Of a DNA stretch of 64,000 bases, positions 11,740-14,982 are shown one piece after another. The position numbers and the translations under genes were made by a program. This stretch comes from Roseburia sp. (GTDB taxonomy: Bacteria > Bacillota > Clostridia > Lachnospirales > Lachnospiraceae), in the NCBI GenBank assembly GCA_017937095.1, contig JAGBEG010000010.1:310001-374000 (forward strand), in the 5' to 3' direction. Below the pieces are notes generated by a model. It made no database searches, was not told the origin of the DNA, and worked only from the letters and a program-made list of their open reading frames with translations. Each line of letters starts with the position of its first letter. Within the stretch, counting starts at the first letter, position 1.

Positions 11740-12930
11740 ATGCGGGAATTTCGCATTCAGGACAATGAGGCGGGACAGCGCTTTGACAAATATTTAAAGA
11801 AGCTTCTTTCCGAAGCGCCGGGCAGTTTTGTATACAAGATGCTGCGCAAGAAGAACATTACCTTAAACGGAAAGAAAGCGGACGGAACAGAGAAGCTTGC
11901 GGGCGGGGATCTGGTCAGGCTGTTTCTCGCGGATGACACCTTTGAGAAATTTTCGGGAAGGGATAAAGTTTCTGCGCGTTATGAGAGCCTTAAGAGCCTG
12001 GGAGAACCGGAAGGTACTGGAAGCTCTCCGAAGGAATTTCCGGGCGATCCGGAAGCTTCCTATAGTGCCTCGAAATGTACATTAAGCGGTTCAGAAGATA
12101 CATTAAATGCTTCGAAGAACGCATTAAGATGTTCAGAAGGTACATTAAGTTCATCAAAGAGCACATTAAGGGAATCGAAAGCTGCATCAACAAAGAAGAA
12201 TCCACGCACCATGCATGGTACATACGAGAGCGTCCTTCCGGTACTTTATGAGGATAACGACATCCTTATTGTAAACAAACCTTCGGGAATGCTTTCACAG
12301 AAGGCAAAGCCGACGGATCTTTCTGCGAACGAATACATCCTGCATTATCTGATTGAAAAGGGGGAACTGACCGAGGAGACGATGCAGACTTTTATGCCGT
12401 CTATTTGCAACCGGCTCGACCGCAATACCTCAGGGATTCTGATTGCAGGAAAGACCTTAAAGGGGCTTCAGGAGACGGCGGACGCTTTAAAGGAGCGCAC
12501 GGTTTTAAAGTATTACCGCTGTATCGTAAAGGGTGAACTGAACGAAAAGGCTTATATCAGGGGATGGCTCACAAAAGAGGAAAGGACGAATAAGGTGACG
12601 GTCTCTAAGGCAGCGCCGCAGGGAAAGGATGCACAGCCGATCGAGACGGAGTATCGTCCGGTTCATGTGAAAAACGGCTATACAGAGCTGGAAGTGCATC
12701 TGATCACCGGACGTTCCCATCAGATTCGCGCGCATCTTTCTTCTATCGGTCATCCGATTATCGGTGATCCCAAGTACGGAGATCAGAAGGTGAATGCATA
12801 TTTTCGAAGGGAATGTAAGATTACGTCTCAGATGCTTCATGCATACCGGATTGTGCTTGCCGGTCAAAGAGAGATTGTTGCGCCCTGCGGAGAAGAATTT
12901 GTGCGGGTGCGAAAGATGCTTGGATTCTGA
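11740..12930 (+). CDS. RluA-family pseudouridine synthase with repeat-bearing linker
   Basis: An S4-like N-terminal domain (residues 1-75: FDKYLKKLLSEAPGSFVYKM) is followed by a disordered linker, then the RluA catalytic domain from about 165 with LYEDNDILIVNKPSGML and the active-site NRLDRNTSGIL, and ends with GRSHQIRAHL. Such enzymes modify 23S rRNA or tRNA uridines; the specific site is unclear. The unusual part is the linker of about 75 residues (87-160), Ser-rich and containing five tandem 7-residue repeats. A second RluA-family gene (RluD type) lies at 47.0 kb. Confidence 0.88.
   Translation: MREFRIQDNEAGQRFDKYLKKLLSEAPGSFVYKMLRKKNITLNGKKADGTEKLAGGDLVRLFLADDTFEKFSGRDKVSARYESLKSLGEPEGTGSSPKEFPGDPEASYSASKCTLSGSEDTLNASKNALRCSEGTLSSSKSTLRESKAASTKKNPRTMHGTYESVLPVLYEDNDILIVNKPSGMLSQKAKPTDLSANEYILHYLIEKGELTEETMQTFMPSICNRLDRNTSGILIAGKTLKGLQETADALKERTVLKYYRCIVKGELNEKAYIRGWLTKEERTNKVTVSKAAPQGKDAQPIETEYRPVHVKNGYTELEVHLITGRSHQIRAHLSSIGHPIIGDPKYGDQKVNAYFRRECKITSQMLHAYRIVLAGQREIVAPCGEEFVRVRKMLGF
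12070..12174 (+). repeat. 21-bp in-frame tandem repeat, 5 copies, in RluA-type gene
   Basis: Five 21-bp units begin at 12070, 12091, 12112, 12133 and 12154. Each encodes a Ser-(Lys/Glu)-x-(Thr/Ala)-Leu-x-x heptad: SKCTLSG, SEDTLNA, SKNALRC, SEGTLSS, SKSTLRE. Ser-Lys and Ser-Glu units alternate, so the higher-order period is 42 bp. Lies in the linker between the S4-like and catalytic domains. Confidence 0.9.
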
Positions 12931-12963
12931 TACTTTTCAGGGAAAGTAACGATGTTGTATAGA

Positions 12964-13494
12964 CATAATTCTTATTATGCCTATATAGCATACCTCACAT
13001 TCCGAATGGAGAATGGCTGCGGCGTTTCAGTCGCAAAATCCGGCATTTCTAGCGAGCCGTTTCACGCATCCTGTGATATTTCATGTCTTTCCAATGGTGA
13101 ACACTTCCGCCTGGATGTGTTCGTGGACGATAAGACAATATTTAAGCACTTTCATGCGCCGCTTGGCGGGCTTTCGCGCAAAACATAACCGCGTCATCCG
13201 ATGTTTGAGACATCATCTGCCACTCATTTTAATCGCAGATGGTGTCGAGTTTCGGATGACGCGGTTTTATCGTGATTTTGTAAGGAAGCCCCGCCTAGCG
13301 GCGCTAGGAAGTGCGCTCTATTGTCTTTCGCCCATCGAAACACATCGGCGGACTGTTCACGCAGTGCAAAGACACGAAATCCGATGCGTGAAATCCGGCT
13401 CGAAGAAATGACAGGATTTTGACTCCAATGAAAACGCCACATTCCATTCTCATTCTGGAATGTGGCATATGTTATGCGCATAATAAGAATTATG
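12964..13494. repeat. 531-bp imperfect palindrome (long inverted repeat) in convergent gap
   Basis: This fills the 612-base gap between two convergent genes. Its ends are a perfect 17-bp inverted repeat (CATAATTCTTATTATGC at 12964-12980, complement at 13478-13494). The arms stay alignable inward for about 240 bases: shared blocks include CACATTCC, AAAATCC, CATTTCT, TTTCACGCATC, GTGTCTTT and GCGCCGCT. At the centre CCGCGTCATCCG (13189-13200) pairs with 13253-13264, and GACATCATCTGC pairs with GCAGATGGTGTC with one G-U. Short open frames of 78-132 codons run through it on both strands but lack good ribosome sites and family resemblance. Could be a folded RNA, a non-autonomous mobile repeat, or two inverted copies of a family repeat. 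Confidence 0.85.
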
Positions 13495-13542
13495 CACTAA
13501 GAAAACATAAAAGCCCATGGAGAGAATCAAAACCAATCTGCA

Positions 13543-13920
13543 TCAGAGCTTTCCGGTGCTCGCATTGATATGACGCTTGATTGCGTCGAAGCTCTCCGTA
13601 CTCACGTCATGTTCAATCTTGCAGGCGTCCTCAGCAGCGATTTTGGGATCGACGCCGAGCATCGTAAGCCAGTTTGAGAGAATGGTATGGCGCTCATAAA
13701 TCTTTTCTGCAACGGCAAGCCCGGCGTCGGTAAGGTGGATATATCCCTCGGGGCTGACTGTGATATAGCCGTTTTCGCGCAGATTCTTCATTGCGACACT
13801 CACGCTTGGCTTTTTGAAATTCATTTCATTGGCAATATCGACGGAACGAACATTTCCTAATCTATGATTCAGGACCAGAATCGTTTCCAGGTAATTCTCG
13901 TTTGACTCATTCATAACCAT
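13543..13920 (-). CDS. DtxR/MntR-family metal-dependent transcriptional regulator
   Basis: A 125-residue winged-helix repressor. The N-terminal HTH covers about 5-65 (NYLETILVLNHRLGNVRSVDIA, then KPSVSVAMKNL as recognition helix), followed by a dimerisation and metal-binding segment with the usual E/H-rich pattern (KIYERHTIL, EDACKIEHDVS). Length and composition fit the short MntR type without an SH3 domain. I start at 13920, where GGAGG lies 8 bases upstream; an upstream TTG at 13941 would include the ribosome site. The regulated metal transporter is not nearby. Manganese or iron as co-repressor cannot be told apart from sequence. Confidence 0.88.
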   Translation of the reverse strand: MVMNESNENYLETILVLNHRLGNVRSVDIANEMNFKKPSVSVAMKNLRENGYITVSPEGYIHLTDAGLAVAEKIYERHTILSNWLTMLGVDPKIAAEDACKIEHDVSTESFDAIKRHINASTGKL

Positions 13921-14103: not shown

Positions 14104-14982
14104 ATGAACAGATGTAAGAAATGCGGCGCAGAGCTGGCGGAGGACGCGAAGTTCTGCAGTGTCTGCGGTACTGCGGCAGAGCAGGAAAAGAGCGCAGGCG
14201 CACAGGAAAGCGCTAATGGAGCAGAGCCAGAAGCACAGGTGTTCGGAGCGGGCACGCAGAATGAAGCAGCGGCGACGGAAGCACAGGTGTTCGGAGCGGG
14301 CGCGCAGAATGAAGCAGCGGCGACGGAAGCACAGCAGTTTGGGGCAGGCACACAGGCGAATGGAAGTCAGCAGTTTGGAGCAGGCGCACAGACGAACGGA
14401 AGTCAGCAGTTTGGAGCAGGCGCACAGATGAACGGAAATCAGCAGTTCGGAAACGGCGCACAGACGAACGGAAGTCAGCAGTTCGGAGCAGGTGCGCAGA
14501 TGAACGGAAATCAGCAGTTCGGAAACAGCGCGCAGGCGAACGGAAGTCAGCAGTTCGGAGCAGGCGCACAGTTCCAGCAGGCAGCGCCGAAGGAAACCGC
14601 AGCAGCGTATTACGCAAAGCAGCCGTATATGCCGCCGGCTGATGACGCACAGGCGAACAAGGGTGTGGCTGTCTGCGGATATTTTGGTCTGCTTTGGATC
14701 GTTCCGCTTGTTACAACGGCGAAGCATTCCCCATTTGCGAAGTTCCATGCAAATCAGGCGCTTATGGTATTCCTCACCTCGATCGCGACATGGGTTGCGG
14801 TGTGGCTTCTGAAACTGATTCTTTTCGCGCTTTTCTCATGGAGAGTATATGCTCTGACAAGATTTCTTTCTTTTGCGGCGGGTGTATTCACTCTGATTCT
14901 TAGTGTTGTAGGCATTGTATATGCGGCGCAGGGCAAGATGAAAGAACTTCCGGTCATCGGACAGTTCCATCTTATTAAATAA
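14104..14982 (+). CDS. Zinc-ribbon membrane protein with Gln/Gly/Asn-rich tandem repeats
   Basis: A 292-residue protein in three parts. Residues 1-25 are a zinc ribbon (CKKCGAELAEDAKFCSVCG). Residues 43-160 are low complexity with tandem repeats of a Q-Q-F-G-x-G-A-Q-x-N-G-S type. Residues 183-285 form a membrane domain with three hydrophobic helices and the start KGVAVCGYFGLLWIVPL, KFHANQALMVF, resembling the DUF4870/Tic20-like family. The zinc ribbon and repeats should be cytosolic, or the topology reversed; this is not determinable here. Similar zinc-ribbon plus DUF4870 proteins are common in Clostridia and of unknown function. It has its own promoter. Confidence 0.85.
   Translation: MNRCKKCGAELAEDAKFCSVCGTAAEQEKSAGAQESANGAEPEAQVFGAGTQNEAAATEAQVFGAGAQNEAAATEAQQFGAGTQANGSQQFGAGAQTNGSQQFGAGAQMNGNQQFGNGAQTNGSQQFGAGAQMNGNQQFGNSAQANGSQQFGAGAQFQQAAPKETAAAYYAKQPYMPPADDAQANKGVAVCGYFGLLWIVPLVTTAKHSPFAKFHANQALMVFLTSIATWVAVWLLKLILFALFSWRVYALTRFLSFAAGVFTLILSVVGIVYAAQGKMKELPVIGQFHLIK
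14230..14577 (+). repeat. Coding tandem repeats (48-bp x2 then 36-bp x about 7)
   Basis: Two 48-bp units start about 14230 (EAQVFGAGTQNEAAAT type); then 36-bp units start at 14329, 14365, 14401, 14437, 14473, 14509 and 14545, each coding 12 residues such as QQFGAGAQTNGS. Within the 36-bp part, GAGAQ and GNGAQ or GNSAQ versions alternate, giving a 72-bp super-period. Confidence 0.9.

What the first reader, a model, noticed from the sequence alone, without database searches (positions are those of the whole stretch)
12964..13494. 531-bp imperfect palindrome in a convergent gap, no convincing gene
Seen: perfect 17-bp terminal inverted repeat, arms alignable for about 240 bp each, and a paired centre with a G-U that keeps the fold. 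Left and right arm read as degraded versions of the same text on opposite strands. Inference: it is either a long hairpin RNA or a non-autonomous mobile repeat; as a bidirectional transcript block it would also suit its place between convergent genes. No target-site duplication was seen.
Basis: partly seen in the sequence, partly recalled or inferred. Interest (0 to 1): 0.7.

Follow-up and report, generated by a model that had tools for sequence, protein, structure and literature searches.

The report
Dispersed giant DNA hairpin repeat family
A 0.5 to 0.8 kb self-complementary DNA repeat is scattered through some bacterial genomes, mostly just after genes and often where transcription terminators sit; its two halves change together so that they keep pairing, which suggests a mobile unit defined by its shape rather than by its end sequences.

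Summary
The palindrome is real and far beyond chance (RNA z -22.5, DNA z -21.4). It is not a one-off: the window's genome holds 8 copies, a congener at least 58, and covariance models find it in 12 genomes of one large family, 8 of 62 in the genus. In a sister genome 6 of 8 orthologous sites show both flanks adjacent without it, several with a terminator-like hairpin instead. Most copies lie at gene 3' ends; convergent gaps are over-represented (29 of 65, against 6 of 63 window gaps), but in four genomes only. The centre is conserved across genera, with fixed internal loops and strong covariation (42 of 48 pairs changed on both sides). The ends are not conserved, yet each copy's outer arms pair with each other. 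G-U is overall no commoner than A-C, so the constraint looks strand-symmetric: a DNA hairpin, or transcripts of both strands. No Rfam match; no transposase found inside; reverse transcriptase and Y1 transposase are each missing from some carriers. Best reading: a non-autonomous mobile hairpin (0.6), enzyme unknown. Template-switch arm correction contributes.

The parts
12915..13544 (.). full extent of arm complementarity of this copy (630 bp), including short host-flank stems
   Evidence: anchored arm alignment, L001 1452-2081; DNA fold
12964..12980 (+). left terminal 17-bp inverted repeat; CATAATTCTTATTATG-type ends are typical of G000 copies, other genomes have other ends
13478..13494 (-). 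right terminal 17-bp inverted repeat
13142..13311 (+). conserved centre, match to covariance models R1 (E 4.2e-36) and R2 (E 2.6e-34); the copy was in the training set of both
   Evidence: G000:C7:323142-323311
13153..13156 (+). left side of conserved 2x2 internal loop (C[GT]G in most copies; CATG here)
   Evidence: alignment A2; positions read off
13304..13307 (+). right side of the same loop, CTAG
   Evidence: alignment A2; positions read off
13202..13208 (+). left side of conserved internal loop TGTYTGA
   Evidence: alignment A2
13247..13251 (+). right side of that loop, GAGTT (not kept in the G151 copies)
   Evidence: alignment A2
11740..12930 (+). left convergent neighbour, RNA pseudouridine synthase
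   Evidence: PF00849
13543..13941 (-). right convergent neighbour, iron-dependent-repressor family regulator
   Evidence: PF02742, PF01325

Best explanation
It is one copy of a dispersed, non-autonomous hairpin element. Shown: the family is multicopy and patchy, orthologous sites lack it, it lies mostly at gene 3' ends, it has a conserved centre and covarying arms, and its outer arms are copy-specific but self-complementary. Inferred: it moves by a machinery supplied in trans that recognises the folded centre as DNA (hairpin on single-stranded DNA, or cruciform) rather than sequence at the ends, and it settles in or beside hairpins of bidirectional terminators. Inferred too: because the insert is self-complementary, the host terminator stem can still close over it from either direction, so the insertion is nearly harmless. 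Individual copies then decay; only well-paired copies seed new ones, and occasional template switching re-matches the arms.
For: Copies: 8 in G000, at least 58 core-bearing places in G035 (merging). Distribution: 8 of 62 genomes of the genus, own included; 3 further genomes of 397 in the family; 1 weak extra, G337, in 392 of the order: 12 in all. Empty sites in sister G020: both flanks adjacent without element for 6 of 8 G000 copies. At the window site 5 of the 6 relatives read (of 29 fetched) have the same convergent neighbour and no element. Terminator-like hairpins, judged by eye, at the empty allele: window site (G020, G072, G035), L002, L004, L005 (stem, no T run), L007. Placement: 29 convergent, 28 co-directional, 8 divergent of 65. 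Covariation: 555 doubly changed cells against 169.9 +- 11.8 shuffled and 62-105 when slid. Strand symmetry: GU 235 / AC 251 in 28 G035 copies, 50/55 in 7 G000 copies, 256/283 in 34 other loci; in 10 consensus sequences GU 37, AC 48, other mismatches 165, WC 1494. Close copies differ symmetrically: WC/GU 223, WC/AC 209, WC/other 195. Copy-specific paired outer arms.
Against: No mobilising enzyme found, no clear target-site duplication, no autonomous version: the one long gap between end motifs in G035 (7.1 kb) holds a lacZ-type operon. At L003 and L009 the empty allele is not a hairpin that the element splits; L002's old terminator stem is not kept around the element. G020 could have lost copies; only the window site was checked in other relatives. 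Convergent excess comes from G000, G035, G076 and G259 (28 of 45); the other genomes have 1 of 20, and 8 of 65 sites are divergent. Strand symmetry is not uniform by zone (GU 225 to AC 185 within 100 nt of the anchor, 112 to 200 at 100-200 nt), and on the RNAalifold structure GU exceeds AC, 118 to 61, though that method allows GU.
Confidence: 0.6

Rival explanations
1. A structured non-coding RNA family (3'UTR or independent RNA) that acts as RNA; the hairpin is kept because the transcript must fold. (Rival odds are not mutually exclusive.)
For: Conserved unpaired motifs and compensatory changes over genera; gene 3' ends are likely transcribed; GU 118 to AC 61 on the RNAalifold structure; mild GU excess near the centre, 225 to 185, and in deep comparisons, 2143 to 1628.
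Against: GU = AC overall in unbiased arm alignments and fewer GU than AC in consensus sequences; close copies show no wobble preference; no convincing Rfam match up to E 1 in 8 loci; copy number from 1 to 58 or more and empty sites look mobile; no promoter-like site in 12600-13900.
Confidence: 0.17
2. An ordinary MITE moved by a DDE or Y1 transposase, whose long arms are an extended terminal inverted repeat.
For: G000 copies share CATAATTCTTATTATG-type ends and many G035 copies share GATAAGTAATATTA ends, 44 forward and 45 reverse with up to 1 mismatch against 2 and 1 for the reversed control. Y1_Tnp is present in 5 of 8 multicopy carriers, with 7 matches in G035, the richest carrier.
Against: Ends differ between genomes and between G035 subfamilies while the centre is conserved, the reverse of a MITE; no transposase seen between ends in the places read; Y1_Tnp not found in G000, G076 and G259. 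DDE families were not searched.
Confidence: 0.15
3. Arms are kept alike only by replication template switching (quasipalindrome correction); the repeat has no structural function beyond having been copied around.
For: L087 of G386 has its left internal loop rewritten as an exact complement of the right arm, unlike 4 sibling copies; double changes are clustered, 33 adjacent against 8.1 expected, more than single changes, 345 against 183.5 (54 copy pairs); no overall wobble preference; mechanism published (PMC8794818, passages seen).
Against: It would erase the internal loops, which are instead conserved across genera; it does not explain dispersal or 3'-end placement.
Confidence: 0.15
4. A domesticated bidirectional terminator or insulator, duplicated because convergent genes benefit.
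For: Convergent excess in four genomes; terminator-like stems with A- and T-runs outside several copies, by eye; G000 L004 and G035 L011 lie between the same gene pair.
Against: Relatives have short terminators at the same sites; 36 of 65 sites are not convergent.
Confidence: 0.13

Closest known systems
MITEs (miniature inverted-repeat transposable elements)
   Same: non-coding, dispersed, terminal inverted repeats within a subfamily, empty sites in relatives
   Different: here the centre is conserved and the ends variable; no duplication seen; palindrome over the whole length
REP/BIME palindromes with REP-associated (Y1) transposases
   Same: palindromic and extragenic; palindromes are also known insertion targets of IS elements (PMC1525189, abstract seen)
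   Different: REPs are 20-40 bp (PMC3733652, search listing); here 0.5-0.8 kb; Y1 not found in some carriers
Integron attC sites (recalled, no call)
   Same: structure-conserved, sequence-variable hairpins recognised as folded single-stranded DNA
   Different: much longer here, no cassette seen; integrase not searched for
Group IIC introns (recalled, no call)
   Same: insert at intrinsic terminators
   Different: no ribozyme match in Rfam; RT not found in several carriers
Template-switch-maintained hairpins (PMC8794818, passages seen)
   Same: Watson-Crick arms, multi-base compensatory changes
   Different: here internal loops are conserved and the unit is dispersed

Membership tests
MITE | short, non-coding, no transposase inside | tested here: met
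   open frames of 174 codons in two copies noted
MITE | conserved terminal inverted repeats matching an autonomous element | tested here: inconclusive
   ends conserved only within subfamilies; no autonomous relative in the places read
MITE | target-site duplication | tested here: inconclusive
   none seen by eye in 8 G000 copies, no formal test
MITE | empty sites in relatives | tested here: met
   6 of 8 with both flanks adjacent in G020
REP/RAYT system | Y1 transposase in the carrier genome | tested here: inconclusive
   found in 5 of 8 multicopy carriers, not in G000 (94.6% complete), G076 (99%), G259 (76%); in 7 of the 14 other genomes searched. Old copies may outlive the enzyme
Retroelement mobilised by a reverse transcriptase | RT in the carrier genome | tested here: inconclusive
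   found in 3 of 8 multicopy carriers, not in G000, G076, G013, G259, G151; in 9 of the 14 other genomes searched. Same caveat
Structured RNA (Rfam-like) | conserved secondary structure with covariation | tested here: met
Structured RNA (Rfam-like) | wobble pairs favoured over A-C on one strand | tested here: not met
   overall; opposing figures (deep pairs; central 100 nt)
Structured RNA (Rfam-like) | transcript | not testable with these tools
   no expression data
Integron attC | integron integrase | not tested

The most novel reading that the evidence does not exclude
A mobile DNA element whose unit of movement is the hairpin itself: recognised through a conserved folded centre, landing in hairpin loops (terminators), and taking or leaving whatever palindromic stem surrounds it, so that outer arms differ from copy to copy yet pair within each copy. 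Limits of homology between copies are symmetric about the centre (within 6 nt on the two arms in 41.5% of 325 G035 copy pairs, against 18.4% on average and 24.6% at most in 1000 shuffles), as this predicts; the pairs are not independent.
Probability: 0.25. Interest if true: 0.85.

Novelty: new variant of a known kind. Interest (0 to 1): 0.64.

Why it matters
If right, bacteria carry a class of mobile DNA that searches for transposase genes or conserved ends would miss, that uses terminators as safe harbours, and that gives a natural test system for how long palindromes persist and are corrected in replicating chromosomes.

Tried and rejected
Named-genome scan for one central motif: 2 hits, in a Verrucomicrobia MAG and Saccharomonospora, which I take as chance because my own arithmetic expects about 2 (the tool says that the window's genome or near ones may be left out). 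Viral contigs 0. Plasmids and phages 0, one G035 copy as query.

Recurrent partner gene beside copies: 467 flank frames were clustered; the largest cluster (8 frames) was not identified, others looked by eye like ordinary chromosomal genes; I saw no partner. Replication-strand bias of the 46 CM hits in G035: 21 of 46 if the origin is at base 1, anywhere from 13 to 33 for other assumed origins, so uninformative. A CTGYCGC stem as a general terminator of these genomes: 0 in the window; in 278 kb of 81 other fetched loci one site only, and that is the L004 empty site itself, which might also be an element remnant. Autonomous copy: the 7.1-kb gap in G035 is a lacZ-type operon. Promoter-like sites in 12600-13900: 0, shuffles 1.8; terminator-like 3, shuffles 1.3.

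Rows dropped: of 38 G000/G035 copies held, L009, L025 and L026 lacked the centre anchor and were left out; L027 and L040 (arms short) were left out of the G035 rows; L020, L034, L036 and L042 (side branch) were left out of model R1. L091 was left out, and 3 copies at contig edges were not classified. Of 28 G035 copies only 16, in three subfamilies, entered; groups with fewer than 3 copies were skipped.

Limits: BLAST in G035 scored 40 of 87 candidates and the CM 46 of 1068, so copy numbers are lower bounds; multi-genome CM searches used stricter filters. The order sample did not list how many of its 392 genomes lie outside the family, 24 genomes of other families had no BLAST match. Copies are related, so counts of cells and pairs are not independent events. 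The ORF caller is crude and used 100 aa for the background and 80 aa for loci. Empty-site hairpins were judged by eye.

Full report
OBSERVATION. The window palindrome is as described and longer. Arms pair end to end (MFE -282.5, shuffles -148.1 +- 6.0, z -22.5; as DNA z -21.4), and complementarity continues to about 12915-13544, i.e. to the stop codons of a pseudouridine synthase gene and a convergent iron-dependent-repressor-type gene. No internal frame tested has a Pfam match (3 frames), and the 132-aa frame is not kept in the six other G000 copies examined; two copies do have an open frame of 174 codons, longer than in 200 shuffles, which I leave unexplained.

FAMILY. The window's genome (G000) has 8 copies: seven with the centre (the query and six at 75-92% identity), and one with the centre deleted, L008+L009. 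Congener G035 (one contig, 3.6 Mb) has at least 58 core-bearing places, 76 counting places with end motifs only (merged; the end motif has a small chance background, control 2 and 1). A covariance model of the centre (R1, 31 copies) found the family in 8 of 62 genomes of the genus, own included, and in G151, G259 and G386 of other genera among 397 of the family. A broader model (R2, 46 copies of 10 genomes) added one weak hit, G337, in 392 genomes of the order; every match was in the same family, but the listing does not say how many of the 392 lie outside it. G020, G061, G071 and G337 have single, partly weak matches. Rfam has nothing at gathering score in the window and nothing convincing up to E 1 in eight loci.

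PLACEMENT AND EMPTY SITES. With a crude ORF caller, 65 of 68 copies could be classified: 29 convergent, 28 co-directional, 8 divergent; the window itself has 6 convergent gaps of 63. The convergent excess comes from G000 (4 of 7), G035 (18 of 28), G076 (3 of 5) and G259 (3 of 5); the other seven genomes together have 1 of 20. In sister genome G020 both flanks are adjacent without the element for the window site, L002, L003, L005, L007 and L009; only the left flank was found for L004 and L006, with no element evident in the 160 bases shown. At the window site, G072, G035, G008 and G071 also have the same convergent neighbour and no element, while G061 has another gene (six of 29 fetched relatives read). 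By eye, the empty allele is a terminator-like hairpin at the window site, L002, L004, L005 (no T run) and L007, not at L003 (the element lies beside an intact terminator) or L009 (a gap of about 12 bp). Around L004 and L005 the host stem survives outside the element; at L002 it does not. L004 (G000) and L011 (G035) lie between the same two genes with opposite centre orientation, which suggests repeated use of one site.

ANATOMY. The centre (about 170 nt) is conserved over genera with unpaired motifs: CTTTCGTG opposite CTAGAAAG (a 2x2 loop), TGTYTGA opposite GAGTT, and GAACAAAAC opposite TTTGTGA. The helices between them covary: 92.0% of 2176 cells paired (67.7% shuffled), 42 of 48 pairs with changes on both sides, 555 doubly changed cells against 169.9 +- 11.8, and 36-45% pairing when slid. 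Outer arms are a different matter. In G035, 180-230 and 230-270 nt from the centre anchor, the left arm resembles the right arm of its own copy (score 37.0 and 25.6) more than the left arms of other copies (19.7 and 13.2). Beyond 270 nt the same-copy excess largely vanishes (p 0.24 at 270-310; stray values of 0.022 at 310-350 and 0.036 at 500-550) (26 copies). In G000 the zone just outside the shared ends shows the same (16.6 against 10.2 cross-copy, p 0.02, 7 copies), while 180-225 nt gives p 0.063. Homology between G035 copies tends to stop at equal distances on both arms (Spearman 0.64). L011 has more than 100 bp of such private, paired arm, too long for a host terminator stem alone.

RNA OR DNA. 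In an RNA helix G-U is tolerated and A-C is not (general knowledge). Here they are about equal: 50/55 (7 G000 copies) and 235/251 (28 G035 copies), 256/283 (34 further loci). By zone it is not uniform: summed over, GU 225 to AC 185 within 100 nt of the anchor and 112 to 200 at 100-200 nt; related copies share these states. In consensus sequences of 10 genome or subfamily groups, which remove recent decay, GU is 37, AC 48, and other mismatches 165, in which the fixed loops fall. Close copies (34 pairs under 20% divergence) show WC/GU 223 and WC/AC 209; deeper pairs accumulate compensated changes, transitions and transversions, 28% of changed pairs at 40-50% divergence, with a mild GU excess, 2143 against 1628. 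On the RNAalifold structure GU is 118 and AC 61, a result against my reading that I discount because that structure was selected with GU allowed. So a copy seems to decay freely, but lineages that keep spreading keep Watson-Crick arms, on either strand. That points to a DNA hairpin or cruciform, or to a need on both strands as expected between convergent genes. Template switching also acts: L087 shows one arm overwritten by the complement of the other, and double changes cluster; but it would not keep the loops.

MECHANISM. Shown: multicopy, orthologous sites without the element, mostly 3'-end placement, covariation, overall strand symmetry, private paired outer arms. Inferred: trans mobilisation through the folded centre, terminator hairpins as landing places, and harmlessness through stem closure. 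RVT_1 was found in 3 of 8 multicopy carriers (and 9 of 14 other genomes), Y1_Tnp in 5 of 8 (and 7 of 14), so neither is obligatory, unless lost or in missing sequence; G035, the richest carrier, does have 7 Y1 matches and 2 RVT_1. Other recombinases and DDE transposases were not searched.

KNOWN. It works somewhat like a MITE or a REP, but key tests of both fail or stay open; attC and group IIC comparisons are from memory. Seven paper searches listed nothing that I recognised as such a family, judged from titles and abstract starts; subscription papers and preprints are not covered. From PMC1525189 I saw the abstract, from PMC8794818 passages; other papers only as listings.

Noticed in passing
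L092 1018-8199 (G035:C1 about 2288955-2296065): Element ends 7.1 kb apart flank a beta-galactosidase-like gene with AraC-like regulators and a transporter-like gene (named by eye); an operon seems to have entered, or been carried between, element remnants.
   Followed up: partly
L087, centre: Left internal loop replaced by an exact complement of the right arm (32-bp perfect inner stem), unlike 4 sibling copies: a snapshot of template-switch arm correction.
   Followed up: partly
L020, L034, L036, L042, left arm near the centre: A small extra hairpin (GATGGCATAAATGCCATC type) inserted in one arm only, giving a side branch.
   Followed up: no
L008/L009 (G000:C19:104141-104544): Copy with the conserved centre deleted but both arms kept.
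   Followed up: no
L094, L096 (G035): About 125-bp and 210-bp derivatives holding only the two element ends.
   Followed up: no
L004 and L011: Element in the same convergent gap in two species, centre in opposite orientation; hotspot or inversion.
   Followed up: partly
L004, L005 (G000): Longest open frame of 174 codons inside the element, above 200 base shuffles; no test of coding was made.
   Followed up: no
window 14104-14982: Predicted protein with a zinc-ribbon-like start and a long degenerate Gln/Gly/Ala-rich tandem repeat (seen by eye).
   Followed up: no
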